From positions 124,001-188,000 of the forward strand of contig NZ_CP077771.1 in the NCBI RefSeq assembly GCF_019134595.1: a stretch of 64,000 bases of DNA, given 5' to 3'. The stretch's first letter is position 1. Each line of letters begins with the position of its first letter. This document shows positions 21,643-54,556 of this stretch, piece by piece. The position numbers and the translations under genes were made by a program. The DNA comes from Pseudoalteromonas shioyasakiensis (lineage in GTDB: Bacteria > Pseudomonadota > Gammaproteobacteria > Enterobacterales > Alteromonadaceae). The notes under the pieces were generated by a model, which was given only the letters and a program-made list of their open reading frames with translations, was not told where the DNA came from and searched no databases.

Positions 21643-24600
21643 TTAGCCAATATCAAATTCTGAAATTTTAACTTCACTAACAGTAGAGTTATCATTTGTT
21701 TTTGTTATAGGGGTCTCAATGTGTAAATATTTAATATCATTACCATCTTCCTCCGCCTCAATTATTGCCGATGCTGCCGTCCTATCAGTATTGCCATTAG
21801 CCGTACTATTTTTATCCATATTCTCAGTAATTGCTTGCGCATACTTTGCAGTGCCTTGCTGATAATCCTGATCACCAATTTGCTTCTTACCCAATGGGCT
21901 TTTGCCGCCTTTAGCCTCAACGATTATTACATCACCTTCTGCATTTTGGTAAACCATATCAAAGTTTCCAGAAACCGATGTAGAATCATCTAAACTATCT
22001 GGGTGAATTCTCTCATAACCTGGGTAATTAGCTTTTACGGCCATGTCGGCTGCCTTTTCACCAATTTTGGCTGATTGCTCATTCACTTTCGGGATTTGCT
22101 TGTTGTATCCGTCGGTTTGACGCGCGAACTTATAACGCTCTTTTATTGCTTCATCTCGTGCATCGCAATGCTGTTGTAATTCTTCTTTTTCTTCTGGCTT
22201 CAATATATAGGTTTTATCTGAGTTTTCTTTCTTTTTAGCCGTCACCAACGTTCTTGCTGTATTTTCTTTAATGCGCCCTTTCGTTGCCCATTCTTCATTA
22301 ACGGCCTTACCATCAAACTCATGCATACCTGCAAATTCTTCGATAGTAAGTTCCATTTCTTTAGTTTCTCCGGCTATATTACGGTGAATAGTAATGGTAT
22401 TGTCGACTTCATTCATTGCCTCTACGGTGTAAGCATAATTAAGCTTGTTCACACCATCTGGTTTCTGAACTTTTAACTTACCCTCTGGATCTGTAATTGC
22501 AGCACTATCTATCGCACTTTTTAGAATTTTATCCTTCGCTGTTTGATCAATCCCATTCCCGACTAATGTATCTAACATTGCAGATAACTTTTCTTGCCCT
22601 TCTTTACATAACAACCCAAACGGATCCACCCAATTAACCGGATTCGGCGCGTATTGATAGTGGTTTATGCCACCCACTAAGCCAATGGGGTCTTGGTTTA
22701 TAAAACGTTGTTGCTTTGGGCTGTAATAACGGTAGCAGTTGTAGTGTAGGCCGCTTTCTTCATCAAAATATTGCCCTTGAAAACGTATTGGCTGAGTGAA
22801 GCTGTTTTCTTTATTAAAGTCAGCATCGGCTTCTGGTTCTTCATAGCCATACACATCGGCGTGGTTTTGCCATACAACCTCTGCGTTTTTATTAGTTACA
22901 AAACGTGGGGTATTTAGTTGGTCTAGGTGGTAGTAATACAATTCACCTTGTTTAATCAGTGCGACTGGGTGAAATTGATTGGGTAAGTTGATGTACCAGG
23001 TATACTCGCCGTGCTGGTATTCACCTATTAGCTGGTCGTTATCCCAAATATAATCAATCTTGCCATGCTCAGTCTGCTTAGCAATGCGACGACCCAGTGG
23101 GTCGTAGTCGTAATGTGTTAGCGTACCGTTGTTGTTAAAGCTGCTTAATTGGTTGAACGCATTGTATTCACGGTGCGTTTTTATGCCTTTACCCGTTTCA
23201 CGAACTTGGTTACCACAGTCATCGTATTCAAAATCGCTATCGCCAAAATGGGTTAACCTGTCAGCATCGACTTGGCTATGTGTAACAGCATCATTAGCTT
23301 CTTGTTTATTGACTGCTTCATCATGCTGTACTTGGGTTTGGCTAATCGGGTTACCAAAGCTGTCCCACTGAAATTGCTTGGCGGTTTCTGGCGCTTGTGT
23401 ACCTGACTTTGCATCAGCTAGATTTTGCTGAATTAACTGGCCAAGGCTATTGTATTCAAACTGTGTATTTTGGCAGCTAATGCCTTGTTCTTCACGCGCA
23501 ATGAGTTGATTAACCGCATCATATTGATAATCACAGCTATCAAATAATGTGTGCTCTGGATGCGATAGTTGCTGCTGCGTTAAACGCCCAAAAACATCAA
23601 ACGCCTGATTAAGGGTAACCTGATTACCGAAACGTTGAGTTTTGATATTATTTTGGCTGTCGTAGCCAAGCTCGACGAGTTTTGCTAACTCACCATCCGC
23701 TCGCTTTACCTGTATAGCACTTAACTGACCAAAACTATTGTAGTTGTAATAAAGGGTTGTTGAGTCTGGCAAGGTAAGAGACTGTCGTCTGCCATAGTCA
23801 TCGTAGCTGTATACAAGTTTATGAGTCTGAGACTGGTTGTGAATTTGCTCAACACTGAGTAGTCGTCCGCCTTTATCAAACGACTGTTTAATCGTTGATT
23901 GCTCATTATGAGCACGCGCTATTTTACCCTCTGGCGTATAACTGTAATGGTTAGCGTTATTAACTATGTGTTTATTTGTGGCTAGACTTGCGTGCTGCGA
24001 AATAACGCGGCCTAGCTTATCACGCTTAATATTTACATGGCGTTTGTCGCTTTGCGTGACAGCCACTAAGCGATTACATGCGTCGTACTTAAATTGCTGC
24101 TCAGTACCATCAAAACCCGTGATTTGTGTTGGGTTTTCGTTTGCATCGTAATTAATGCGATAAATATGGCCGTCACTACGCTCGATTGCGGTTAAATTTC
24201 GCTCTTTATCATACGTTAAATGCAGTGCGCTGCCATCTGGCTGGATCACGCAGTGAGGTTGGCTTAGTCCCTCAAAGTGCTGCTCTGTGGTATCACCATT
24301 ACCGTTTTTCGAACTAACTAATCTACCAGCATCATCATAAGAAAAAAGCTGTTGTTGTTTGTTATCAGGGTTACTTTGCTCGAACGCGGTTGTTTCAACT
24401 AGTTGCCCTTGCTCATTATATTTATATTGAGTAAGCAGACCGGCTTGGTTAATGGTTGCGTTTACACGACCGAGGTTATCGTAGCTGTAACGAATGAGCT
24501 CATCATTGTGCTGCTTTGCGAGTAGCTCACCTTGTTCATTCCATGTGTATTTTAATACATGACCGTTTGGCGTGACATACTGGGTCAAATTACCTTGTTT

Positions 24601-26253
24601 GTCGTAACTGTAAAGTGCTATTCGCCCATCTGCTTGGGTTTCACTTTGTAGTAACCCTGAGGCACTGTATTGACGTTTAATCTTCTCGCCATTTGGCAAA
24701 ATAACAACGACTTGTTGACCAAGTTGGTTATAGCCAAATTGAGTGCGGTTACCATCAGCTTGGGTGACTGATTCAAGTTGGCCGTATTCAGTATAGGTAT
24801 AAAGCGTTTGATAACCTAAGGCGTCTGTTTGCGCTACTTTTTGTCCAAGCGAATTGTAATCATAGCGTGTGATATTACCATTGGCATCAGTGTGCTCAAT
24901 CAGCTTACCTTGCTCATTGTGTTCAAAGTGCTCTTGGTTGCCGCGTGAATCTATACTGGTTGTTTTATTGCCTTGATACTCGAACTGATAGCAATAGGTG
25001 TTGTCATCACCCCACTGTTTAATACATTTGGCATCATAACCATATGAGTCCCACTCAAAGTGATGACTAAAACCGCTTGCTCTAGTTCGCTTTATTAGTA
25101 AATTTGCAGCGTTATACTCATAACGCTCTTGTTCAGCAAATTGGTTTGTTGCCGCCACTAAGTTTGACTGTTCATCATACTCATAACTGGCTAACGGCTG
25201 TTCTAAAAGAACTAATTTTCCTTGTTCATTAGTACGATAAGCGTGCACCGTTTTGAGCAAACCGTGCTTATTATATTTCAGTACACAGCCGCGTACTTTG
25301 TTTACTTCAATACGTTGTAAACGCTCCATCGAATCATAATAAAAACGGGTGCTTTGACCTTTTTCATTGATGATTTTTTCGAGCAACCATGCTGATCCAC
25401 CCGGCATAAACGTCAGGTGTTTATCATCTGGTGTTACTAATACTTGCTTGCCATTCTCTTTATAATGAAGCACCAAGTTACTACTTAACTGATAACTCGA
25501 TTGCCCCGGCTTCACTTTTTCAAACTTATGAGTCGCACCATGTTCGTCGTGATACTCAAGCCAGTAGGTGCCCTTTTTCTTTGGGCCCACTTTCGGCGGT
25601 GGTAGGTAATGCTCGGTTAATTGCACTAAATAATCGTGACGCCAGCCATTACCCAGTATTGTTTTTTGATTACAGTGAGACGAACGATATAACCGACGCC
25701 ACGTTAAAGGCCTATTTGCGGCTAATGAGAAGTCAGTTAAAGAAAGAATTTCTTCGCCTGTTAGCATCGAAACCGGGTCTGAACGGCATTCTTGTTCTGT
25801 TATAGGCGTTTCACTTGCGGTTGTGTTACTGGCACTGCCCTTATTGCTAGCAGGAGCTTGTGTTGCTTTTTTGGCATTACTTGGCACAGCCGAAGACGCT
25901 GAACTTCTACTTTGCGATGAACGAGTATTATCACTGACTTGAATGGTGCTTTTTACTTGCTGCTGGTAGCACGTAATGGCACCTGAGGTTAAAGCTTTTA
26001 TCAAAGCCGATGCAGTTTCGCGCGCTGTTGCTTGCCTTGGACAATTAATACCAGCAACATTTAACAATTGAATAAGATCTAATCGTTTAGCAGCATCGCC
26101 ACTTAATACCGCGCCAACCTCAGCTACAAATTTGTAGGCACTATCCGGCGTATTCGTTGCGACAGCAATAAAACCACTGGGGGCTTGCTGTTTAGCTAAC
26201 ACGAGGCAGATGGGATAACGTGTTCCCTGTAACACAACTGCTTTACTATCCAT
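21643..26253 (-). CDS. Rhs/YD-repeat protein with C-terminal PD-(D/E)XK-like nuclease tip
   Basis: This 1536-residue protein has three parts. Residues 1-150 are an N-terminal region with no PAAR and a low-complexity Ser/Ala/Thr linker. A DUF6531-like start (DPVSMLTGEEILSLTDF) and a long array of YD repeats follow. The core ends with the Rhs cleavage region DPIGLVGGINHYQYAPNPVNWVDPFGLLC (to residue 1216). The last 320 residues are the variable toxin. Within it, FDMVY (D1432) and VIIVEAKGG (E1446, K1448) form a restriction-nuclease-like D...EXK site. ATG 26253 is preferred: it overlaps the upstream stop as TAATG, whereas the GTG at 26262 is only two bases from AAGGAA. It is a T6SS cargo, delivered through the separate PAAR/VgrG upstream. 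Confidence 0.92.
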   Translation of the reverse strand: MDSKAVVLQGTRYPICLVLAKQQAPSGFIAVATNTPDSAYKFVAEVGAVLSGDAAKRLDLIQLLNVAGINCPRQATARETASALIKALTSGAITCYQQQVKSTIQVSDNTRSSQSRSSASSAVPSNAKKATQAPASNKGSASNTTASETPITEQECRSDPVSMLTGEEILSLTDFSLAANRPLTWRRLYRSSHCNQKTILGNGWRHDYLVQLTEHYLPPPKVGPKKKGTYWLEYHDEHGATHKFEKVKPGQSSYQLSSNLVLHYKENGKQVLVTPDDKHLTFMPGGSAWLLEKIINEKGQSTRFYYDSMERLQRIEVNKVRGCVLKYNKHGLLKTVHAYRTNEQGKLVLLEQPLASYEYDEQSNLVAATNQFAEQERYEYNAANLLIKRTRASGFSHHFEWDSYGYDAKCIKQWGDDNTYCYQFEYQGNKTTSIDSRGNQEHFEHNEQGKLIEHTDANGNITRYDYNSLGQKVAQTDALGYQTLYTYTEYGQLESVTQADGNRTQFGYNQLGQQVVVILPNGEKIKRQYSASGLLQSETQADGRIALYSYDKQGNLTQYVTPNGHVLKYTWNEQGELLAKQHNDELIRYSYDNLGRVNATINQAGLLTQYKYNEQGQLVETTAFEQSNPDNKQQQLFSYDDAGRLVSSKNGNGDTTEQHFEGLSQPHCVIQPDGSALHLTYDKERNLTAIERSDGHIYRINYDANENPTQITGFDGTEQQFKYDACNRLVAVTQSDKRHVNIKRDKLGRVISQHASLATNKHIVNNANHYSYTPEGKIARAHNEQSTIKQSFDKGGRLLSVEQIHNQSQTHKLVYSYDDYGRRQSLTLPDSTTLYYNYNSFGQLSAIQVKRADGELAKLVELGYDSQNNIKTQRFGNQVTLNQAFDVFGRLTQQQLSHPEHTLFDSCDYQYDAVNQLIAREEQGISCQNTQFEYNSLGQLIQQNLADAKSGTQAPETAKQFQWDSFGNPISQTQVQHDEAVNKQEANDAVTHSQVDADRLTHFGDSDFEYDDCGNQVRETGKGIKTHREYNAFNQLSSFNNNGTLTHYDYDPLGRRIAKQTEHGKIDYIWDNDQLIGEYQHGEYTWYINLPNQFHPVALIKQGELYYYHLDQLNTPRFVTNKNAEVVWQNHADVYGYEEPEADADFNKENSFTQPIRFQGQYFDEESGLHYNCYRYYSPKQQRFINQDPIGLVGGINHYQYAPNPVNWVDPFGLLCKEGQEKLSAMLDTLVGNGIDQTAKDKILKSAIDSAAITDPEGKLKVQKPDGVNKLNYAYTVEAMNEVDNTITIHRNIAGETKEMELTIEEFAGMHEFDGKAVNEEWATKGRIKENTARTLVTAKKKENSDKTYILKPEEKEELQQHCDARDEAIKERYKFARQTDGYNKQIPKVNEQSAKIGEKAADMAVKANYPGYERIHPDSLDDSTSVSGNFDMVYQNAEGDVIIVEAKGGKSPLGKKQIGDQDYQQGTAKYAQAITENMDKNSTANGNTDRTAASAIIEAEEDGNDIKYLHIETPITKTNDNSTVSEVKISEFDIG

Positions 26254-27095
26254 TAGTTGCACATTTCCTTACTTATCCATAAGTATGACGCGACGGCTTG
26301 GTACTTGTTGTACTCTTGCGAAATTATTAACGCCTGCCCAAAACGCTCAGCATAAAGGGCGCTATTTGTCAGGCTTCCGAGGTTTACAACCCCTTCTATT
26401 GCTCCCATTTTGCCTAATTTATAATTAGGAAGTTGGAACATCGTTTGTTCATTAATTTTTTTACTTAAAACAGGTAAATAACTTACCCAATCGTCACTTT
26501 CTAGGCCATTACCTGGAGCAAATACTAAATCTATTTTTTGTTCATTTAGTGATAAAATACGTTCAAGCTCTGCATGTATAGGCTGATGCTTTGCTATATC
26601 CACAGAAGAACACATGCTCGTAGATTGCAACGCCCAGCCTACCTGAGTAAATTCAACATATGCCTTACAAGCCGCTATCCCTAAATATTCAAAGCCGTTA
26701 TGCTTTGAGGCTTTAAACACACCATCAATTGCAATCACATTAAAAGCACTAAAATTTAACTCTTTAGCTAATGCAATCGCACTGTGTATAGCGTTTGCGC
26801 CTTCAAAAATCATCTGTTCGACAGCAATGCCATAACGCTGTTGAAGGCTGTTTATAAATAGTGTTTTATGATCAGTTTGAAAAGGCAGTGCCGGTAATAA
26901 CCAAATTAACGGTTGCTGCACGTCTGACTCTTTCAATACTGACTTTGCTTTTACAATACAGTCATAAATAAAGGCATCAAATGAATGCCAGATTTGCACT
27001 TGCTCATGACCCGAGCTCCCCTCTAGTACTAATACTTCTGGGGCTACTTCATAAGGTGTATCAAACTGCTGTATTGAAATTTTAAATGCACTCAA
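26253..27095 (-). CDS. Thiolase/ketoacyl-synthase-like protein of the Rhs module
   Basis: This 280-residue soluble protein shows a degenerate ketoacyl-synthase (thiolase-fold) rhythm: PLIWLLPALPF, then VEQMIFEGANAIHSAIALAKELNFSAFNVIAIDGVF, then GIAACKAYVEF. The usual active-site cysteine (the ACSS block) is replaced by EGANA, so catalysis is unlikely. Similar thiolase-like proteins occur in some T6SS PAAR/effector operons. Here it is coupled to Rhs (TAATG overlap) and follows the unknown helical gene by two bases. It may act as a loading or folding adaptor for Rhs. The fold call is tentative and the role is inferred from position only. Confidence 0.5.
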   Translation of the reverse strand: MSAFKISIQQFDTPYEVAPEVLVLEGSSGHEQVQIWHSFDAFIYDCIVKAKSVLKESDVQQPLIWLLPALPFQTDHKTLFINSLQQRYGIAVEQMIFEGANAIHSAIALAKELNFSAFNVIAIDGVFKASKHNGFEYLGIAACKAYVEFTQVGWALQSTSMCSSVDIAKHQPIHAELERILSLNEQKIDLVFAPGNGLESDDWVSYLPVLSKKINEQTMFQLPNYKLGKMGAIEGVVNLGSLTNSALYAERFGQALIISQEYNKYQAVASYLWISKEMCN

Positions 27096-28757: not shown

Positions 28758-30611
28758 CTAGTTCAACTTGATCATGCCAGCAGAAAGGGTAATTGCACTC
28801 CCATCAACCTTTACGTTACTGCCTTTAATATTGATATTTGTGCCTTCGATAGAAATATTCCCGCTACTACTCATAGTAATTTTTGCCGATCCGGTCTTAA
28901 TAACGATTTCTTTCCCCGCTTCGATATTGAGTGATTTACCCACTTTCAGCGTGTCATTTTCACCAATATCGACGGTGCGATTCACTTTTACTTTGGCATC
29001 ATCGTTGTTGCCCACTTCAAGAAAACGATCATTATCAATTTTTTCTTTTTGATCATTTTTTACATACAGCTGCTTATCTTTTTCTGCTTGCATGTAAACA
29101 AGTTCATTGCCTTTTTTATCTTCAAAACGCAGTTCATTAAAATTATCTGCACCACCCTCTTTTGTTGAGCGTGTCTTGATACCGCTTTGTGTTTTATCTG
29201 CAGGTAATGCATAAGGAGGCATTAAGTCAGCGTTGTATACTGCACCACTAATAATTGGCTGATCAGGGTCACCATTAATAAAGTCGACTAACACTTCTTG
29301 CCCTACACGAGGAAAGAAAAATGCGCCCCACTTTTTACCGGCCCAGTTTTGTGCAACCCTGATCCAGCATGAACTTTGCGAGTCTTTTTTACCTTCTCGG
29401 TCCCAATCGAACTGCACTTTCACACGTCCGTATTGATCAACCATAATTTCATCTGCGCTGTCGCCCGTCACTATGGCTGTTTGCACACCATGAATAACAG
29501 GCTTGCGCATGCTGTGCGCTGCACGATATGGCACATCTTTTGGTACACATTCAAAGTGATTGGTAAATACTTCTTGCGCGCCAGATTGCTGAGCACCCGA
29601 TTGATTTGGCACCGTAATAGACGTTAGTAAAGATGTGATAGCAAATGTTTTACCTTCTAGGCGCGGGTCTTCATGTTTTTTAAAGCTAAATAATTTACCC
29701 ACCGAGAATGAACGGCAATCACTTCTACCGCTACTTAACTTCATATTACGCTGTAATGATTCAAGTTGAACGGCTGCCAAACCTGCAGCTCTTGGATGGG
29801 TTTCGGCTTCAGCGGTATATTCAAAAATTTCAGCAACTGACTGGGTCGGTAAATTTGCTTTTTTGTGATCGCCATCTGGGTATCTTGGTGGTTGTTTAAA
29901 ATCATAGCCAATACGCTTGTAGCTGCCAGGCGCTATGCTTAAACCACCTTGCCATTTATTAATGTGGGACTCACTGAGGTGACCAGAAGTAAACTCAACT
30001 TTTGCTTCTGCGCACTCTTCGTAAGCTGTTATATCATCAGCGAGTACAAGCGTATGGGCACTGTTACTATGCTCGAAAAAATAAAAAATACCTTCTTGCT
30101 GAAATAAGCGTTGAATAAAGTCAAAATCTGACTCTTGGTACTGAACACAATACTCGTACTTGGGATACGTTTTAGTTGTATTATCTTTAAAAGCGACACT
30201 GTGTTGACCAAACAAATCGGCAAAAATATCTTTTATTGTTTTCTTTTGGAAGATCCGACTGTTTTTGCGGTTTCGCATTGATGCTGCGAAAGGAACAATA
30301 GTGGCGTGGTAATCTATATAATTTTTTTGCTCATCAATATCAGCAGTGCGGCTACCATTAGAGACTAATTGGCTAACTATGCCATGAAAATAACGCTCAC
30401 CAGCGCTATCGGCATTCTTTACTTTAATAGAAACAGGTTTTCCCACCAGATCTTCATGCGCTATTTGTGTGCCTATAGTGAACATATTCACTGACATCAC
30501 AAACAAATCAGACATAGACTCTTGCACCACCAGCCGAGTTAAGTAAAGCGTATCTTTACCTGCTGGGGTGTTAATCTGAATTACATTGTTATCTTGTGTT
30601 GCTTTTTGCAT
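28758..30611 (-). CDS. vgrG: T6SS spike protein VgrG (TssI)
   Basis: This 617-residue protein has the full VgrG plan: gp27-like N-terminal domain (DTLYLTRLVVQESMSDLFVMSVNMF), the hub and OB region, then the gp5-like segment (DQYGRVKVQFDWDREGKKDSQSSCWIRVAQNWAGKKWGAFFFPRVGQEVLVDFINGDPDQPIISG). A beta-helix of repeated VxV/IxI turns runs to the C-terminus. It has no C-terminal effector extension, so cargo must ride on PAAR. ATG 30611 is chosen because AGGAAG lies six bases before it; the longer frame overlaps the terminator upstream. It is separated from hcp by that terminator. Confidence 0.95.
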   Translation of the reverse strand: MQKATQDNNVIQINTPAGKDTLYLTRLVVQESMSDLFVMSVNMFTIGTQIAHEDLVGKPVSIKVKNADSAGERYFHGIVSQLVSNGSRTADIDEQKNYIDYHATIVPFAASMRNRKNSRIFQKKTIKDIFADLFGQHSVAFKDNTTKTYPKYEYCVQYQESDFDFIQRLFQQEGIFYFFEHSNSAHTLVLADDITAYEECAEAKVEFTSGHLSESHINKWQGGLSIAPGSYKRIGYDFKQPPRYPDGDHKKANLPTQSVAEIFEYTAEAETHPRAAGLAAVQLESLQRNMKLSSGRSDCRSFSVGKLFSFKKHEDPRLEGKTFAITSLLTSITVPNQSGAQQSGAQEVFTNHFECVPKDVPYRAAHSMRKPVIHGVQTAIVTGDSADEIMVDQYGRVKVQFDWDREGKKDSQSSCWIRVAQNWAGKKWGAFFFPRVGQEVLVDFINGDPDQPIISGAVYNADLMPPYALPADKTQSGIKTRSTKEGGADNFNELRFEDKKGNELVYMQAEKDKQLYVKNDQKEKIDNDRFLEVGNNDDAKVKVNRTVDIGENDTLKVGKSLNIEAGKEIVIKTGSAKITMSSSGNISIEGTNINIKGSNVKVDGSAITLSAGMIKLN

Positions 30612-30635
30612 TCCATGCTTCCTATTCCTAAAGAT

Positions 30636-30664
30636 CAAAAAAGCTCTGAGCAAAACTCAGAGCT
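30636..30664 (-). terminator. Terminator between hcp and vgrG
   Basis: AGCTCTGAG (30642-30650) and CTCAGAGCT (30656-30664) form a perfect nine-pair stem with a five-base loop. Read on the minus strand, T residues follow immediately. It lies just after the hcp stop and just before vgrG. It should reduce read-through, so Hcp is made in large excess over VgrG. Confidence 0.85.
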
Positions 30665-37308: not shown

Positions 37309-38076
37309 TCAATTGGTGAAAGAGCCAAGTTCAGACAATAAGACTGCTTCATCATTTATAAACAGCATTTTCATTCCGCGTCCTAAGTACATTTCTTCAC
37401 TTAATTCTTGCCATTCAGTCACTTGGCCTAGTTTTTCTATTTCACTCTTTGAGTGTGGATAAACAACTGGGATATGAGCTGTACCGACAGGTCCATCTTT
37501 GATAGTGACCTCAACACGAAGCCAAATTTGCTCAACGATTGACTCTATTGGTTGAACTTCAAATTTTTCAATTTCATCAAAGCGCGCTAAATAAAACTCA
37601 CCGTTGGTCCCCAAAATTTCCAAAAATGGGTTTAGTGAATCATCGATATCTCTGATTGCAGTAAGTTGCTCATTTGCTGAATTGGTTCTGAAAGACTCAA
37701 CTTTGGCTGCTTTTTCAGTTGTCTCTTTTAAATCTTCTTCACGTAAAGCAATATGCATCTGTAGAAATATCTCATCGAGTTCATCTGCTTCATGAAATAG
37801 CTTAGGAGCCGCTTTACCTTCATAAAAATCTTGTCGTGCTTGCTCGGCCCTGATTAAGTGTCTTAAATTAACAGCACCTACCGCAAGTTCTGGTGATTTA
37901 GTCACCATAAAATCTAATTGTTTATCCGCTTTTTCAAGTTCACCATTAACACACAACAATTCCGTATAAGCGCTGCGAATATCAAAATTAAGAGGATCAT
38001 CTTTTAGTTTTTGTGCGCAGTACTCTAATGCATCAGCTAATTTTCCATTGCGAATACACTCATGGATCTTTTTCAT
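37309..38076 (-). CDS. tagJ: T6SS accessory protein TagJ (ImpE/SciE)
   Basis: This 255-residue protein has a TPR-like N-terminal half (IRNGKLADALEYCAQKLKDDPLNFDIRSAYTELLCVNGELEKADKQLDFM) and the ImpE C-terminal half (DSLNPFLEILGTNGEFYLARFDEIEKFEVQP ... WLRVEVTIKDGPVGTAHIPVVYP). TagJ binds TssB and is thought to help position or recycle the sheath with ClpV. It lies two bases after the second tssC gene and just before tssE, the usual place. Confidence 0.93.
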   Translation of the reverse strand: MKKIHECIRNGKLADALEYCAQKLKDDPLNFDIRSAYTELLCVNGELEKADKQLDFMVTKSPELAVGAVNLRHLIRAEQARQDFYEGKAAPKLFHEADELDEIFLQMHIALREEDLKETTEKAAKVESFRTNSANEQLTAIRDIDDSLNPFLEILGTNGEFYLARFDEIEKFEVQPIESIVEQIWLRVEVTIKDGPVGTAHIPVVYPHSKSEIEKLGQVTEWQELSEEMYLGRGMKMLFINDEAVLLSELGSFTN

Positions 38077-38078
38077 TT

Positions 38079-39605
38079 TTATTCCTTTATTTGATGATGA
38101 GGACTTAGTTCAGTCACTAATTTGATACTTGATACCATTTGATCAAGCTGAAAATGAGGTTGTAGTTGTAAGACAGAAAAGTAGTGGCCTGGCTTCGATT
38201 TATTTTCAGTCACTTTCACTTTCGCATTTGCCAAAGGATACTTACTTCTTATTTGCTCTGAGGCAGAATCCGATGCTGTTGTGTAGTTATTAACCCATGC
38301 TTGCAAGCCTTGTTCACAAGCTTGAGCTGTACTGTAAGAACCAACCCGATCACGTGCTAGGAGTTTTAAATAGTGAGCAAAACGTGACACACATAAAATA
38401 TATTGCAGCATAGACGATAAGCGGGCATTTACTGTCGATGCTTCATTATCGTAGTGCTTGGCTTGCTGAGCCGAAGCATTACTATAAAAAACCAGATGCT
38501 CAGTATTAGTCACGGATGATGCTGGTATAAACCCAAGTTCAGAAAATTGCTTTTCTAATTTACTGGTCACAATCAAATCTATTGGTGGCTTGGCTTCTTT
38601 TCTGTATACATCAGTTGAAAAGTAATTTTTCGTCAACCCGGTAACGATACCTTTAGATATTTTACCTGGTTCAATGCCTCTTATTTGACCAAACCAACCA
38701 CTTTCAGCATAAGCACGCACTAAAGTCGACACAAATTGGTACGCGGCGTTTCCCCATAACATGTCTGTTTCTGGTGTTGTTATTTTTTCTGTATATAAAA
38801 AGTCTAAGTGACGGGTACCGTCGTTTTTATAGGGAGCTCTGACTAAAACATGCGGCAATACAAGACCAACAAAACGCGCATCTTCCATGGCTCTAAAGCT
38901 ACGCCACTTTGTATATTCGACCTGTTCAAATTGATTATATAAATCGAATTGGTAACCTAGATCAGTAAAGCTGTTTGTACCAAATAAGCTTGCTGACACA
39001 GCAGTAATAAATGGCGAAAAGGAGGCTGCGGCTACTTTCGAAATTTCTTTTAAGGTGTCTATATCGTTGTAAATTGTACCCGGTGCATTCCCGTTGGTAA
39101 TTTCGTAATCACCAATCAATACACCAAAGGGCTCTCCGCCAGGGCGGTCGAACTCATTTTGATAAATTAATTGAAAGAAGCTACTTTGATCAAAATCGAT
39201 TGCCTTATTAACATCTCTCGATAATGTATTCCAATCACAATCTAACAGGCGTAACTTTACTTTTTTTTCTTTATCGCTAAGTTCTGTTTGTAAAGTTAAC
39301 CACCATAAATTGCGCCAGCTGGCTTCTAATTGTTGAAATGTTGAGTGATGTAAAATCTGATCTAATTGCTCAGATATAAGCGAGTCTATTTTAACAATGG
39401 TCAGTTGCAAATATGAAATGATTGACTCTTTATCCCACTGCAATGGTGAATCAGAAGAGCCTTCAAGCCATAATAACAGAGCTTTAAATGTCTCTTTTTC
39501 ATTTAGAAAGCGTTCCAATAAAGCGCTATTTTCGAAGATATTTGACGCTGTATTATGAGAAAATACAGCGTCAGCTCCTATGAATGAAAACTCTTCACAA
39601 TTCAT
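38079..39605 (-). CDS. Second, divergent sheath subunit TssC (TssC2)
   Basis: This 508-residue protein is a clear TssC paralog: [87 protein letters not shown], and FAHYLKLLARDRVGSYSTAQACEQGLQAWVNNY, in the same order as in TssC. It differs strongly from its neighbour. It has a longer, unrelated N-terminal 60 residues and a shortened catalytic-like mid part. Gap to tssC is 27 bases; gap to tagJ is two. It may cap the sheath, mix into it or regulate assembly. Which is unknown. Confidence 0.9.
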   Translation of the reverse strand: MNCEEFSFIGADAVFSHNTASNIFENSALLERFLNEKETFKALLLWLEGSSDSPLQWDKESIISYLQLTIVKIDSLISEQLDQILHHSTFQQLEASWRNLWWLTLQTELSDKEKKVKLRLLDCDWNTLSRDVNKAIDFDQSSFFQLIYQNEFDRPGGEPFGVLIGDYEITNGNAPGTIYNDIDTLKEISKVAAASFSPFITAVSASLFGTNSFTDLGYQFDLYNQFEQVEYTKWRSFRAMEDARFVGLVLPHVLVRAPYKNDGTRHLDFLYTEKITTPETDMLWGNAAYQFVSTLVRAYAESGWFGQIRGIEPGKISKGIVTGLTKNYFSTDVYRKEAKPPIDLIVTSKLEKQFSELGFIPASSVTNTEHLVFYSNASAQQAKHYDNEASTVNARLSSMLQYILCVSRFAHYLKLLARDRVGSYSTAQACEQGLQAWVNNYTTASDSASEQIRSKYPLANAKVKVTENKSKPGHYFSVLQLQPHFQLDQMVSSIKLVTELSPHHQIKE

Positions 39606-39632: not shown

Positions 39633-41126
39633 TTAACCAATCTCAGGGATTTTGGCAACCAATCTAAGTGATGACGTTAACTCTTCCATTTGTAACCATG
39701 GTCTTAACCACGCAACAGCATTATAGGCACCAGGTTGACCAGGAATTTCTTTAACTGAAACTTTTGCATCTGCTAAAGGATAACGTGCTCTGATATCTTG
39801 ACCACCACCCTCTGTTGCATTTACGTAAGATAGAATCCAACGATTTAACCAAGATTCAACGTCTTCTGCTTCCATGAAGCTACCGATTTTATCGCGTGCC
39901 ATTACTTTTAAATAATGAGCAAAGCGAGAAGTAGCCATGAGGTAAGGCAAGCGAGCTGAAATAGCAGCATTCGCAGTTGCATCAGGCGTTGAGTAAACTT
40001 GCGGTTTTTGACAAGATTGTCCACCAAAGAACACAGCGTAATCTGTATTTTTATAATGACACAGTGGTAAGAAACCAAGCTTACTTAACTCTGCTTCACG
40101 TCGATCAGTAATACCAATCTCTGTTGGGCATTTAAGATCAGGATCACCATCATCACTCGTGAATATATGGGTAGGTAAACCTTCTACTTTACCGCCGCCC
40201 TCTGCGCCACGAATAGCAGTACAAAAACCATATTGAGAGAATGCTTTTGTCATATTCGTCGCCATCGCATAGGCAGCATTACTCCAGCAATAATCACCGT
40301 TATCAGTACTTACAGAGCGACCGGCAAGTTCATCAACTTCAAATTCTTCATAGTTGAATTCTTCAACAGGTTTAGATGCTACACCGTAAGGTAAACGAGA
40401 TAAAAATCTTGGCATTGTGAGGGAAACAAAGCGAGAATCATCGCTGTCTCTAAATGAGCGCCATTTAGTGTATTCAAGAGATTCAAATACTTTTTCAAGA
40501 TCTCTTGGTTTAGTGAGTTCTTCCCAACTATCAAAACCAAAGAGTGAAGGTGATGATGCCGAAATGAACGGACAGAAACCAGCAGCAGCAACGTTTGACA
40601 TTAAACCAAGAGTTTCAACGTCTTCAGGGTGATTAGTAAACTCAAAATCACCAACAATAGTACCGTAAGGTTCACCACCTGGTGTACCAAACTCTGACTC
40701 GTAGATTTTTTTAAATGTTTGGCTTTGATCAAACTCAACCGCTTTACTTAAATCTTTATGAAGCTCTTTCTTCTTCATATTAAGCACACGAATTTTTAAA
40801 GTTGAACCAGTATCTGAATTCATTACCAAGTGATTCAAACCACGCCATGAACCTTCTAATTTTTGAAAGTCTTCATGGTGCATAATGACGCTGAGTTGTT
40901 TCGATATTTTTTGGTCGATCAACTGAATCGCTTCATTGAAAGTCACTGTCATGTTTTTATTCCACTGAACAGTGCCCTTTAAAGCTTCTTCAGTTAAAGT
41001 GCGTAACAGCTCTTCTGCTCGGCTTGCGTCTGTTTGTTTAGTTGCGCCAATCGCTTGAGTTAATAACGACGTTGACTCTGTCGTTGTTGCTGTGTCTAAT
41101 TCTTGTGCTAGTGTTTCGGTGCTCAT
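39633..41126 (-). CDS. tssC: T6SS sheath large subunit TssC (VipB)
   Basis: This 497-residue protein is canonical Tss[101 protein letters not shown], and [37 protein letters not shown]. With TssB it builds the contractile sheath. It overlaps tssB by four bases (ATGA), so the two partners are made in step. Followed by a divergent second copy. Confidence 0.97.
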
Positions 41127-42904: not shown

Positions 42905-43702
42905 CTATTTACCCAATAACAAGGGCACAGTTAAATCATTATTAATTAATGTTTTACTATTATAATTTTCCAACTTTTCATTTTTCACCAAAATAAAAGT
43001 AACATTATCTCTTGCACCACGCACAAGAGTGGAATGAATTAAAGCCATACCTGAGTCAATGATATTTTTAGGTTCCAAAGCAATACTAATTTCCGAGTCA
43101 TTTAATTCGCCGGTTAATCCATCAGAACAAAGTAAGAAGATATCATCAGTTAATAAGTCGCCTTCTACAAAGTCGACAGACAACTCATTTTGCACCCCTA
43201 CCGCACGTGTAATAACATTTGCTAAAGGGTGATTTATTGCTTCTTGCTCTGTGAGTAACCCCTCATCAATTAAATCATTAATTTGGCTGTGGTCTCGAGA
43301 TAACTGTAACAACCCATTCGCTCTGTAAAGGTATATTCTGCTATCACCTACCCAAATTGCTGAATACTTATTATCTTTAAAAAACAGTACTGTAACTGTT
43401 GTACCGGCCGTCTTGTTAGCCAAAAAGTCACTGCTATATTGGAGCAATTTTGTGTTGGCACTTTTTATCGCCTTGATCAACACCTCGGTCGAAATTGATG
43501 ACGCAGGCAATTCTTCGACTTCAGCCTTAATAACGTCTACCACTAGCTGGCTTGCAAAATCGCCTGCTTCATGGCCTCCCATACCGTCCGCAACAACCCA
43601 AATGTTATACTTATTAAGCTCTATATAAGCATCTTCGTTTAGCTCTCGAACGACTCCGCGATGAGACACGGCATAACTAATAAAATTTTTATTCACACTC
43701 AC
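42905..43702 (-). CDS. pppA: T6SS-associated PP2C phosphatase PppA
   Basis: This 265-residue PP2C-type Ser/Thr phosphatase has the metal-binding motifs VADGMGGHEAGDFAS, then IWVGDSRIYLYR, LLCSDGLTGEL, and RGARDNVTFILV. It reverses phosphorylation of the FHA protein by PpkA and so switches the T6SS off. It begins inside the last codons of tagF (14-base overlap), and is the last gene of the tagH operon. Full length, no missing motif. Confidence 0.95.
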   Translation of the reverse strand: MSVNKNFISYAVSHRGVVRELNEDAYIELNKYNIWVVADGMGGHEAGDFASQLVVDVIKAEVEELPASSISTEVLIKAIKSANTKLLQYSSDFLANKTAGTTVTVLFFKDNKYSAIWVGDSRIYLYRANGLLQLSRDHSQINDLIDEGLLTEQEAINHPLANVITRAVGVQNELSVDFVEGDLLTDDIFLLCSDGLTGELNDSEISIALEPKNIIDSGMALIHSTLVRGARDNVTFILVKNEKLENYNSKTLINNDLTVPLLLGK

Positions 43703-49203: not shown

Positions 49204-50531
49204 TTAGCTTCTAATTGCCCAAAGAATTAAGTTTAAATCAGGGTAATTACCCGATAAATGAATAGCGATACCCCCACTGGTTGTTAGTTTGCTCCAGTGT
49301 TCACTGTTTTTATTAAGCTCAAAATAATGATATCCAGCATGGTAAGGTACTTGACGAGGCGCTGTAGGTAATCCATTTATTGAGATCCCTGGCAGCTGGT
49401 TATTTACTAGGTCTCGAATCGACTCTACGCTACCAATTTTAATTTGCGAAGGTAGCAACTTTCGTAATTCTTCATGGGGAATACTCGCTTTGACAGCTAG
49501 TACGAATTGAGCTGAGTCAAGAATCGACTTATCTCTTAATGCACCGAATGAGATACCAAACTTGCTTTGTTCTAACTTAATTTCAGTAGCTGTTTGTTCA
49601 ATCACTTGGCTTAGTGATTGGTAAAGGAAGTTTACAACTTCTGCAAAAACAAACTGTAAATTTGCATGGTCATATTTTGGAAGTTGCGGCACCCGTTTAT
49701 TCACAGCACTAAATGTTGCAAGTTCTCCAGCTAACTCAATTAGTCGCGCATAAAGCTCTCTCGGGTGAACACGAGAATGCGTTAGTAGGCTTTGAAAAAT
49801 AGCATCATACTTATTAAGTGTTTGTAGCATCAAAAAATCAGCCACGGATGTGCTACCTGCATACCCTTGGCAAAGTCTCACCGCGATACTTTCAGCACGT
49901 TGCTTTATTAAACCAGAAACTTCTCTGACAAGCGCTGTCAGAGGCTTATTACTGGTAACAAACAAACTAGGAGGAATATACTTAGAATCAAGTTTTATTG
50001 CTCCCTCATTGGATACTTCTGTATTTTTGCGAGCGGTAGCAATACATAACCCGATGTATCATCAGACATTAACATCAATCGGCTGTGAAGCTTTGCTACT
50101 TGGATTACTTCTTGAGCCTGGGAGCCTAAACTGTCATCACTAACGGATAAGTCTGCAATCCTATAACGCGTCACTAATTCATCTTCATTAGAAGAGATGT
50201 TGATTCCACTTCCTTTCAAGGCTGGGATTGCAAGGCATATAATTTCATCATAGGCACTTTTAGCTACCACTAAGGGGTCAGGAAGAAACTCATCACTTGG
50301 CATCTGAATTGGGCATAAATCTGGCGAAATAGCTGACAATTTATCAATAGCAAATTGACCGGTTACAAGTAATTCACTATCAATCTCAAGCTCAATGACT
50401 CCCCATGAGTCAGGAACAGTACCCTCTACTACCCTTCTAATTACACTAGAAACATGCTTATCTGCTTGTTGAAAGTGCTGGGGCCTTAAGAACATTCCTT
50501 CTGTCCATGCGACCCGCGTGTAATCACTCAT
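49204..50531 (-). pseudogene. tssK: T6SS baseplate protein TssK, interrupted by a one-base frameshift
   Basis: The gene reads as two pieces: residues 1-178 from 50531 (MSDYTRVAWTEGMFLRPQHFQQADKH ... YVLLPLAKIQ), stopping at 49995, and a second frame to 49204 (LFVTSNKPLTALVREVSGLI ... YHYFELNKNSEHWSKL). The second frame is shifted by -1. Read as if one base were missing near 50019-50020, the joined peptide runs KIQEVSNEGAIKLDSKYIPPSLF, which is the normal TssK joint. Together they make about 440 residues, the normal length. TssK is essential for baseplate docking to TssM/TssL. Either the T6SS is inactive, or this is a sequence error, or the frame slips at a nearby AAAAA run (about 50023-50027). 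Confidence 0.9.
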
Positions 50532-50540
50532 GTTTATTCC

Positions 50541-50999
50541 TTAATCTTTCATATATACAGCTAACGACTCAACATTTACGTCAATGTCATCATAGCCAGT
50601 TGGGTCAACCTCTATCACAGCTCGCCAACGGGCCTTCTCAATATCTCTGTAAGCGACTACAACACCAACAAAACGAGTGTTTCTGTTTAAGTTCATTTTG
50701 TATTCAATGTTTGCAGAAGGTTGTAATTCGAGTTCATCTTTTTTAAGAAGATCAGGTCCAAGTACTGCTTCAGGGTTTTCATATAAGCTAAAAAAATCTT
50801 GTGTATCAAAAATGGTGCGAGAGCTCAGTTCAAACACTTTATAAACAACAGGTGAAGGACGACCAGAGATATCTGGGTTCACATCTGAGGCCACTGAAAT
50901 GTTTAAATCAGTAGATGGGGGCACAAACTTGTTTACCGTTGTACAGGCTGTTAAAAATACCCATAAAGCACCTACAAAAGTAAGCTTGAACTTCAACAT
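50541..50999 (-). CDS. tssJ: T6SS outer-membrane lipoprotein TssJ
   Basis: This 152-residue lipoprotein has a lipobox LTAC with cysteine 19, and a mature beta-sandwich typical of TssJ (DLNISVASDVNPDISGRPSPVVYKVFELSSRTIFDTQDFFSLYE ... LGPDLLKKDELELQPS). It anchors TssM to the outer membrane. It lies 9 bases before tssK and 26 bases after tagH. Confidence 0.95.
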   Translation of the reverse strand: MLKFKLTFVGALWVFLTACTTVNKFVPPSTDLNISVASDVNPDISGRPSPVVYKVFELSSRTIFDTQDFFSLYENPEAVLGPDLLKKDELELQPSANIEYKMNLNRNTRFVGVVVAYRDIEKARWRAVIEVDPTGYDDIDVNVESLAVYMKD

Positions 51000-51025: not shown

Positions 51026-52336
51026 CTAATTTCCAACATTGTATGCCTTCAGAAAATCATCAGAAAATGCTAAAACACCTTTAGCTTTAACATCATCTGC
51101 AATGTCAGCATACAATTCGTTATATATACGCCAGCTAGAAGCTCCACCATAAGTTGGCAATGAGCTAAGAAAACCACCATTACTGCTTTGCGCTTTTATG
51201 CCATGAGGTGATAATTGCTCTAAAAGGCCATTAAGCGCACCAGTTGTTCCGGCTAATAATCCTTGTTCATGAAGCTTTATATCTACAAAACTTTCTTTAA
51301 CTGCTTCATTCGCTGGCAAAAAACTTGCACTGTTACGAACAAAAAGATTCTGCATAACATCATCAATGGTTGCTGAAAATTTAAGCGGGTTATTCTGTTC
51401 AACTTTAAACGTTGTGTGATTCAATTTAAGTTGGTTCTTAATATTTGTCCGTTGGCGAATCAAATCCATCGAGCCTTCAAGGAACAACTTAAAGCACTCG
51501 CCCATATGCTGCCATGTATCTTCACTTTGCAGCTCTGCTGAAAGCTTTTCATTTATACTTAAGCCATTTAAAAATGAAGAGATTAACTTCGATGAGTTAG
51601 GATTTTGATTATCTTCTATTGGCACACTAACTGAGGCGTTATTTGCAGCCATTGCTCTATTGCCACTATTAAACGACTTACTATCATTAACGGCTGTAGT
51701 GCTACTTACAGGCTCTTTTGCCGGCGGTACAGGCATGCTATTTTCTTTTTCTTCTACCGTAGCTGATAGTTGTGCTAGATCATCCCAGTCTTCTGGAATC
51801 GGTTGAGTAAGGCTTTGTTGTGAAAAGGTGTCAATATTATCACTCGGCGTTTTCTGAAAAGTTGGCGCGACCATTGCCTCTTCAAGTTCATTTGCACTGC
51901 CATAAGTCATTTGCTGTTCAACAAAACCATTAATATCATCGCTTGAGTTTTTTGGCATTTCCGATGGCAAGGAATTGAAAGAATTGATTTGTGGCTCAAA
52001 ATCTTGAACTTGGTTAGCTTGCTGTAGAGTTGATTCTATTTGAAAATCACCAATAGTGAGAATGTCACCATCATTTAGACGATGTTTATTTTCTTTTCCT
52101 AACGGTGAAACTGAAAAGTTTATAAACAATCCATTGGTAGAGTAGTCATACACGTAGAATCCATCGGTCTCTTTGACTATTTTACCATGACGCCCTGATA
52201 TTACTTTTTCAGGATCAGGTAAATACCAATCGCACTCTTCTGAACGACCAAAAATTAATTCATTTTTTACTACTTTTTTCGCATCTATCTCAGGAGAGAG
52301 CCTGTGATAACTGGTAACATTTAGAATCACTTCCAT
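51026..52336 (-). CDS. tagH: T6SS FHA-domain protein TagH
   Basis: This 436-residue protein has an FHA domain at about residues 24-80 (FGRSEECDWYLPDPEKVISGRHGKIVKETDGFYVYDYSTNGLFINF), with the arginine/serine/asparagine residues that bind phosphothreonine. A low-complexity linker and a C-terminal TagH/TssA-FHA-type helical domain follow (FLEGSMDLIRQRTNIKNQLKLNHTTFKVEQNNPLKFS ... SAIDDVMQNLF). It receives the signal from PpkA, is dephosphorylated by PppA and inhibited by TagF. First gene of the tagH-tssJKLM-tagF-pppA operon. Confidence 0.93.
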   Translation of the reverse strand: MEVILNVTSYHRLSPEIDAKKVVKNELIFGRSEECDWYLPDPEKVISGRHGKIVKETDGFYVYDYSTNGLFINFSVSPLGKENKHRLNDGDILTIGDFQIESTLQQANQVQDFEPQINSFNSLPSEMPKNSSDDINGFVEQQMTYGSANELEEAMVAPTFQKTPSDNIDTFSQQSLTQPIPEDWDDLAQLSATVEEKENSMPVPPAKEPVSSTTAVNDSKSFNSGNRAMAANNASVSVPIEDNQNPNSSKLISSFLNGLSINEKLSAELQSEDTWQHMGECFKLFLEGSMDLIRQRTNIKNQLKLNHTTFKVEQNNPLKFSATIDDVMQNLFVRNSASFLPANEAVKESFVDIKLHEQGLLAGTTGALNGLLEQLSPHGIKAQSSNGGFLSSLPTYGGASSWRIYNELYADIADDVKAKGVLAFSDDFLKAYNVGN

Positions 52337-52552: not shown

Positions 52553-52597
52553 ATGACACCAGTCAAAAGGATATTGATTTTTATAAAAGGAATTATA

Positions 52598-54556
52598 ATG
52601 ACTGCTGAAAATGATAAAACACGTATTGCTTCCATAAAAAATAAAAATGCAGTACCGAAAGAAAGTAAGCTTCACTTAATTGGTAAATATCTAGCTAAGC
52701 GCTATTTGATTGAAGAATTGATTGGCGAAGGCGGAATGGGTTATATTTATCGAGCACGAGATACATATCTAAATACTAATTCTAATCAAGACGATATCGT
52801 CGCTATCAAAGTATTGCACCCAGAGTTAGCAGATTCTGAAGATGCGCTATTGTTGTTGAAAGATGAAACAATAAAAACGCGCTCTCTTTCTCACCCTAAC
52901 ATTGTCAAAGTGTTTTCAGCATCTTCAAGTGACAACTATCATTTCGTTGTAATGGAATGGATTGAAGGTGAAACTCTTGAACAGTTGATCAAAAGAAACA
53001 AGCCTAGTGGATTATCTCAAAAAAGAGCTAAACCAATTTTAAATCAACTGATTGATGCCCTTACTTATGCGCACTCAAAAGGAATCGTTCATAGCGACCT
53101 AAAGCCTTCAAACATTATTCTTGATTCGCAAGGAAACTTAAAAATTTTGGATTTTGGGATTGCAAAAACCAATCTTCAAGAAGATATATACGCAGCCCCT
53201 GCAAACAATGAGCAACCAAACAGCAATGGTTACACCCCTACATATGCAAGCCCCGAACAGTTAAATGGAGACAAATCTTCAGCTAAAGACGATATATTTG
53301 CATTTGGTTGTATTGCATTTGAGCTATTAACGAGCAAGCACCCATACAACAGAGTCGCTGCAAATCAAGTAGCAAAAGAAACAAGTGTAAAAAAACCTAG
53401 GAACTGTTCACTAAGTGTTTGGCTTAAAATCAAAAAATGCCTCTCACTTGATGCCGCAAAACGCCCTAAATCATTGATCGAAGTTAGGTCTGAACTAAAC
53501 AACAATAGTACATCTTTATTAATCCATGCCGCTTGCTACACATTACTCCTTGGAGCTGCTGGGTATCAGTTTTTATCTCAAAGCGATAAACAGCAATTGA
53601 TTGAAGCAAACTATCAAAACTCGCTTGCAAAAGTAGAACAACTTGAAACATGGATGAATTGGCCTAGTGATGACTTACCGCAACGTTTAAATGAGATTCC
53701 TCCACAATACAAAGTATTAAAAGAAGGTCTTTTAGCTGTTCATCAAAGTAAAGTCGTGGAAAAATTTACTAAGCAAGTTGATAACTTACCAAAAACAGCC
53801 ATAAATACAAGGGCCTACGATGATGCTATTGATATTTATGACGAAGCAAAAAAAATCTATCCCGATTCAGAAACATTAAATAACAAGCTCGAAAGTTTAC
53901 TTACTGAAAGGCAGTCGATCCTATCTGATCTTAGTTATCGTTTAGATGTACTGTTATCGCAATCTAGATATGATGAAAGTGGAGAAAACAATATTCACAG
54001 CCTTGTATCTCAATTAAAAATTATCGACGCTAGTTATAGTTATGTACCTAACCAAGAACATATAAATAATTTCAAAATGGCCGTTTTAACGTCTATTGAA
54101 AATGAAGATTTCGTCGCGCAAAAAACGTTACTTGATGTCGGTGAATTAGTTTTTTCAAATACTTCAGAACTTGAACCACTCGTTACGGCATTGCAAAAAA
54201 AAGAGTCAGCCATGGTTGCATTAGCTGAGTATAAGAGAAAAACAAATGAAGGGATGACTGTCAGTTATCCTGACGATGATGCCAAAATATTTTATCAAGA
54301 AAAGTTAGAAAAGTTTAATACTCAACTTGCCGATGTTTCTGACTATAAACAACTTATGGAATTTGATGAATCATTTAGTAAGGAAGCTGAAATTTTCCCC
54401 GAATCTTTTGAGCCCATTTTACTAATCAAAGATCAAATAGCGACGACTTATATTTCTATGGCGAGTAGCTTAATGAAACGAAAAATGTACAGAACAGCCG
54501 AAAGACTTGTCGAGCGTAGCGAAGAAATTAGAAAGAGCCTAGAAAATAAAATCTAG
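52598..54556 (+). CDS. ppkA: T6SS Ser/Thr protein kinase PpkA-like
   Basis: This 652-residue kinase has a glycine loop GEGGMG (43-48), catalytic lysine K71 (VAIKVLHPE), the loop HSDLKPSN with D167, DFG (D185) and a P-type segment YASPEQL. The HRD arginine is replaced by serine (HSD), a sign of a kinase that does not need activation-loop phosphorylation. A membrane helix (HAACYTLLLGAAGYQFL, near residues 310-327) and a periplasmic helical/TPR-like part follow. This matches PpkA, which phosphorylates TagH. ATG 52598 is chosen because AAAGG precedes it by seven bases. Confidence 0.92.
   Translation: MTAENDKTRIASIKNKNAVPKESKLHLIGKYLAKRYLIEELIGEGGMGYIYRARDTYLNTNSNQDDIVAIKVLHPELADSEDALLLLKDETIKTRSLSHPNIVKVFSASSSDNYHFVVMEWIEGETLEQLIKRNKPSGLSQKRAKPILNQLIDALTYAHSKGIVHSDLKPSNIILDSQGNLKILDFGIAKTNLQEDIYAAPANNEQPNSNGYTPTYASPEQLNGDKSSAKDDIFAFGCIAFELLTSKHPYNRVAANQVAKETSVKKPRNCSLSVWLKIKKCLSLDAAKRPKSLIEVRSELNNNSTSLLIHAACYTLLLGAAGYQFLSQSDKQQLIEANYQNSLAKVEQLETWMNWPSDDLPQRLNEIPPQYKVLKEGLLAVHQSKVVEKFTKQVDNLPKTAINTRAYDDAIDIYDEAKKIYPDSETLNNKLESLLTERQSILSDLSYRLDVLLSQSRYDESGENNIHSLVSQLKIIDASYSYVPNQEHINNFKMAVLTSIENEDFVAQKTLLDVGELVFSNTSELEPLVTALQKKESAMVALAEYKRKTNEGMTVSYPDDDAKIFYQEKLEKFNTQLADVSDYKQLMEFDESFSKEAEIFPESFEPILLIKDQIATTYISMASSLMKRKMYRTAERLVERSEEIRKSLENKI

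What the first reader, a model, noticed from the sequence alone, without database searches (positions are those of the whole stretch)
49990..50030. One-base frameshift splits tssK in an otherwise intact T6SS
The two halves of TssK are in frames offset by -1. Adding back one base near 50019-50020 restores a normal family joint (KIQEVSNEGAIKLDSKYIPP). All other core genes are full length, so the loss is recent, a sequence error, or compensated by slippage at the AAAAA run at 50023-50027. The last would be a new kind of control of a baseplate protein.
Basis: partly seen in the sequence, partly recalled or inferred. Interest (0 to 1): 0.75.

Follow-up and report, generated by a model that had tools for sequence, protein, structure and literature searches.

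The report
Frameshift-broken tssK in one Pseudoalteromonas
In this marine bacterium's only type VI secretion gene cluster found, the baseplate gene tssK is cut in two by a one-base frame change that none of the relatives examined shares, which looks like an ordinary recent mutation or a sequencing slip rather than a new form of gene control.

Summary
In detail: tssK lies in two pieces in frames offset by one (N piece 49998-50531, C piece open from about 50052 to 49207, minus strand); both match TssK models. The other core genes look full length. No other TssK match exists in the genome. In 41 of 43 other loci checked, tssK is in one open frame of 442-464 codons (24 distinct sequences aligned), including nearest relative G024 at 93% DNA identity; the other two are 25-32-base matches taken as chance. 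Both pieces are as conserved as intact neighbours (dN/dS 0.024 and 0.035), so the break is very recent or not real. Slippage finds no support: the A5 run is in 1 of 24 relatives, where the gene is intact; A_AAA_A occurs 32 times in 7704 codons of the cluster; the following fold is unremarkable (z -1.13). Best reading: a recent private frameshift that should disable the system, with a one-base sequence error close behind; raw reads would decide. Paper searches failed, so nothing is claimed about print. Ordinary.

The parts
49998..50531 (-). tssK N-terminal piece (178 codons; stop at 49995-49997)
   Evidence: PF05936 E 5.4e-35, profile 1-159; TIGR03353; aligns to residues 5-170 of PDB chain 5m30_A
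49207..50052 (-). tssK C-terminal piece: open frame; its first ATG/GTG/TTG is a TTG at 49965
   Evidence: PF05936 E 3.7e-91, profile 167-424; no stop in 282 codons; start codons; aligns to residues 181-424 of 5m30_A
50024..50028 (-). A5 run (T5 on the + strand) beside the frame break
   Evidence: in 1 of 24 aligned relatives
49998..50052 (-). interval in which both frames are open, within which the break lies
50544..50999 (-). tssJ
   Evidence: TIGR03352
47913..49187 (-). tssL, long form
   Evidence: TIGR03349 and TIGR03350
44402..47932 (-). tssM
   Evidence: TIGR03348
41642..42745 (-). tssA
   Evidence: TIGR03363
41126..41626 (-). tssB
   Evidence: TIGR03358
39636..41126 (-). tssC
   Evidence: TIGR03355
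38082..39605 (-). second tssC-like gene
   Evidence: TIGR03355
36813..37355 (-). tssE
   Evidence: TIGR03357
34990..36813 (-). tssF
   Evidence: TIGR03359
34013..34990 (-). tssG
   Evidence: TIGR03347
31390..33990 (-). tssH (ClpV)
   Evidence: TIGR03345
30686..31162 (-). hcp (tssD)
   Evidence: TIGR03344, 46.9 bits against a cut-off of 58.9
28761..30653 (-). vgrG (tssI)
   Evidence: TIGR03361
51029..52336 (-). tagH (FHA protein)
   Evidence: TIGR03354

Best explanation
A real, very recent one-base frameshift in the only tssK found in this Pseudoalteromonas genome. Shown: the frame break, its absence from the relatives examined, no second TssK match in the genome, and continued conservation of both pieces. 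Inferred: translation of tssK ends after 178 codons, the C piece is hardly made because it lacks a good start, the baseplate cannot be assembled, and the otherwise complete type VI system of this isolate is silent.
For: One open frame of 442-464 codons in 41 of 43 other loci, the other two being 25-32-base matches; these loci include repeats of the same gene, 24 distinct sequences being aligned. G024 intact at 93% DNA identity. Only two TssK matches in the genome, the two pieces. Only frame break among window ORFs of 80 codons or more compared with G024. dN/dS 0.024 (C piece) and 0.035 (N piece) against 0.018-0.063 for tssA, B, C (two), E, F, G, H, J, L, M. Polarised changes 6 nonsynonymous to 32 synonymous on this branch, 3 to 20 on the G024 branch (Fisher p 1.0), bounding the break to about the last 12-15% of the branch under an assumed neutral ratio of 2.5-3. 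The assembly is not full of indels: 3 of 521 compared chromid genes and 0 of 126 compared chromosome genes look frameshifted.
Against: A one-base indel beside a five-base run is also what a consensus error looks like, and no reads are available. This genome has 3 frame breaks where G024 has 0 (521 and 522 chromid genes; Fisher p 0.12), a slight hint of lower accuracy. Near-perfect conservation fits an error as well as a recent mutation.
Confidence: 0.56

Rival explanations
1. Sequencing or assembly error: the gene is intact in the organism and one base was lost in the consensus.
For: One-base indel beside an A5 run; both pieces conserved; no other break seen in the cluster; 3 of 521 frame-broken chromid genes here against 0 of 522 in G024 (p 0.12).
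Against: 26% of random 51-base stretches of this chromid hold a run of five or more, and the other two breaks have no such run within 10 bases of their interval. 0 of 126 compared chromosome genes are broken, so accuracy is generally good.
Confidence: 0.38
2. Slippage: ribosomes or RNA polymerase change frame at the A5 run often enough to supply full-length TssK, so that baseplate supply is a controlled step.
For: The run lies in the interval where both frames are open, with an A_AAA_A register; the C piece stays conserved.
Against: Run in 1 of 24 aligned relatives, whose gene is intact; A_AAA_AAR absent at the site; A_AAA_A 32 times in 7704 codons of the cluster. The fold of 79 bases starting five bases after the run has z -1.13, 24 of 200 shuffles as good. 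No Shine-Dalgarno word in the 30 bases before it. The layout is in none of the 41 other loci with tssK.
Confidence: 0.04
3. Split TssK: the two pieces are made separately and work together.
For: The break falls near residues 170-181 of solved TssK chains, toward the end of the N-terminal beta part and before the helices that begin near residue 198 in a model of an intact relative (mean pLDDT 40.9, so weak).
Against: First ATG/GTG/TTG start of the C piece is a TTG at 49965 without any of the Shine-Dalgarno words searched for; the only such words precede an ATA. The same weak model places the break inside a strand rather than between domains.
Confidence: 0.02

Closest known systems
TssK (VasE/ImpJ; PF05936, TIGR03353), type VI secretion baseplate subunit
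   Same: Both pieces score above cut-off and together cover most of the profile; both align to solved TssK chains 5y0e, 5m30, 6giy
   Different: Two frames here; one frame in the 41 other loci that hold the gene
Programmed -1 ribosomal frameshift sites of bacteria (dnaX and insertion-sequence type; recalled)
   Same: An A run in the overlap of two frames
   Different: No A_AAA_AAR at the site, unremarkable 3' fold, no upstream Shine-Dalgarno word, not conserved

Membership tests
TssK (PF05936 / TIGR03353) | match to the family profile above the curated cut-off | tested here: met
   Each piece alone scores above cut-off
TssK (PF05936 / TIGR03353) | one continuous protein of about 440 residues | tested here: not met
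   Two frames in this genome; one frame in 41 other loci
TssK (PF05936 / TIGR03353) | lies in a cluster with the other core tss genes | tested here: met
Programmed ribosomal frameshifting | slippery heptamer in the right register | tested here: inconclusive
   A_AAA_A present, A_AAA_AAR not; A_AAA_A is common in the cluster
Programmed ribosomal frameshifting | stimulating 3' structure | tested here: not met
   79 bases after the run fold with z -1.13, 24 of 200 shuffles as good
Programmed ribosomal frameshifting | Shine-Dalgarno-like element upstream | tested here: not met
   None of seven words in the 30 bases before the run
Programmed ribosomal frameshifting | two-frame layout conserved in relatives | tested here: not met
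   0 of 41 other loci with tssK
Programmed ribosomal frameshifting | full-length product made | not testable with these tools
   needs mass spectrometry

The most novel reading that the evidence does not exclude
The break is real in this strain, and unaided -1 slippage at the A5 run yields a little full-length TssK, enough to keep a slow or rare type VI assembly alive, so that baseplate supply becomes the limiting step.
Probability: 0.04. Interest if true: 0.5.

Novelty: already known. Interest (0 to 1): 0.12.

Why it matters
It matters little beyond annotation: this genome should not be counted as having a working type VI system until the base is checked. If real, it is one more recent loss of the system in a single isolate whose cluster is otherwise kept. 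If slippage did supply TssK, it would be a new way to limit assembly, but nothing here points to that.

Tried and rejected
A second tssK in the genome to cover the loss: none found. A decaying cluster: rejected, no other frame break and low dN/dS. A badly polished assembly: rejected as a general state, still possible for one base. Same-frame internal stops (5 of 521 and 10 of 522 chromid genes, 4 of 126 and 1 of 125 chromosome genes, in G000 and G024 respectively; not inspected one by one) did not separate error from decay and were not used. A base rate of broken tssK in the order: one search found the family in 174 of 394 genomes and the places listed each span nearly the whole profile in one frame, but the list ends at about E 3e-117, where broken copies would fall below, so it is no rate. 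Structure prediction of an intact relative gave a poor model (mean pLDDT 40.9) and carries little weight. One search aligned a wrong stretch of L002 and was not used. Rows dropped: one search lists no hits under 60% identity (10 of 53 query ORFs with a hit in one direction, 4 of 50 in the other) and no ORFs under 80 codons. Searches count only ORFs of 120 codons or more with a match of 80% identity or more (521 of 633 and 522 of 694 on the chromid; 126 of 249 and 125 of 472 in the chromosome sample); among those counted, 5, 3, 2 and 1 were partial matches without an adjacent piece in another frame and were not counted as frameshifts. One search left out L001 and seven loci (L009-L013, L042, L043) and merged 12 repeats.

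Full report
Where it is. The window lies on the 899 kb second contig (C2, here called the chromid) of a 4.72 Mb, two-contig genome. The genus is Pseudoalteromonas: the best named matches are of that genus, and one genome labelled same genus (G025) has a contig of the same length and an identical tssK as a named Pseudoalteromonas arctica record. The species was not established.

Observation. On the minus strand the first 178 codons of tssK (50531-49998) end at a stop at 49995-49997, while the rest of the gene is open from about 50052 to 49207 in another frame. Both pieces are TssK by Pfam and NCBIfam and align with solved TssK chains, residues 5-170 and 181-424 of 5m30_A. The five-base run is at 50024-50028. 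The neighbours tssJ, tssL, tssM, tssA, tssB, two tssC-like genes, tssE, tssF, tssG, tssH, vgrG and tagH match their families over most of their length; hcp matches below the curated cut-off. Against G024, tssK is the only frame break among the ORFs of 80 codons or more compared in the window.

Relatives. DNA searches of 60 and of 108 genomes (the window's own included in each) and a scan of named genomes gave 43 loci besides the window's own. In 41 of them there is one TssK-like open frame of 442-464 codons; the other two are matches of 25 and 32 bases without such a frame in the stretch fetched, taken as chance. Many of these loci are the same gene fetched from two collections, and two lie on one gene; 24 distinct relatives were aligned. 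A named chromid, Pseudoalteromonas sp. CF6-2, fetched later, is annotated with one tssK between tssJ and tssL. The genome searches score only a few candidates per genome, so a genome without a match is no proof of absence. In the window's own genome the family search finds only the two pieces.

Age. Against G024 the N piece has dN/dS 0.035 and the C piece 0.024; tssA, tssB, both tssC, tssE, tssF, tssG, tssH, tssJ, tssL and tssM have 0.018-0.063. With three 74%-identical outgroups the branch of this genome has 6 nonsynonymous and 32 synonymous changes, the G024 branch 3 and 20, with 27 unassigned (Fisher p 1.0). If the gene had been free of constraint since the break, this bounds the break to about the last 12-15% of the branch (the neutral ratio of 2.5-3 is assumed). 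So the break is very recent, or not real.

Error or mutation. Of 521 compared chromid genes, 3 look frameshifted in this genome (tssK; one at the very start of the contig; one at C2 24089-28610), and of 522 none in G024 (Fisher p 0.12). In a chromosome sample 0 of 126 and 0 of 125 do. The other two breaks have no run of five or more within 10 bases of their interval, and 26% of random 51-base stretches of the chromid hold such a run. The assembly is thus generally sound, and the run is weak evidence for an error. Without reads the choice between a real mutation and a one-base error cannot be made; I put the mutation somewhat ahead.

Slippage. The A5 run is in 1 of 24 aligned relatives, and that gene is intact. 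The site is of the A_AAA_A type, found 32 times in 7704 codons of the cluster (this one included); A_AAA_AAR, found 3 times elsewhere in the cluster, is not there. The 79 bases that begin five bases after the run fold no better than many shuffles (z -1.13, 24 of 200), and the 30 bases before it hold none of seven Shine-Dalgarno words. The C piece has no good start of its own. Nothing marks the place as a control site. Weak unaided slippage stays possible.

Effect. TssK is held to be needed for baseplate assembly (recalled; the paper library could not be reached). If the break is real, the type VI system of this isolate should be off.

Verdict. A confirmed but ordinary observation: a private one-base frame break in tssK, probably a recent mutation, possibly a sequence error, with no sign of a new control.

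Noticed in passing
21646-26262 (minus strand): A 1539-residue RHS-repeat protein (PF05593, PF20148) downstream of vgrG; 95% identical to its G024 counterpart up to residue 1262, with no match listed after it, as in polymorphic RHS proteins with exchanged ends (the comparison is recalled).
   Followed up: partly
38082-39605 and 39636-41126 (minus strand): Two neighbouring genes both match the sheath large subunit TssC (TIGR03355), with an ImpE-family protein at 37312-38076.
   Followed up: no
G000:C2:2-2055 (L070) and G000:C2:24089-28610 (L071): Two further genes on the same contig look frameshifted against G024; the first lies at the very start of the contig, so its gene also runs off the end.
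   Followed up: partly
42908-43702 (minus) and 52553-54553 (plus): A PP2C-type phosphatase (best model NF033484, 220 bits against a cut-off of 230) and a serine/threonine kinase (PF00069) lie in and beside the cluster with an FHA protein at 51029-52336, like known phosphorylation control of type VI secretion (the comparison is recalled).
   Followed up: no
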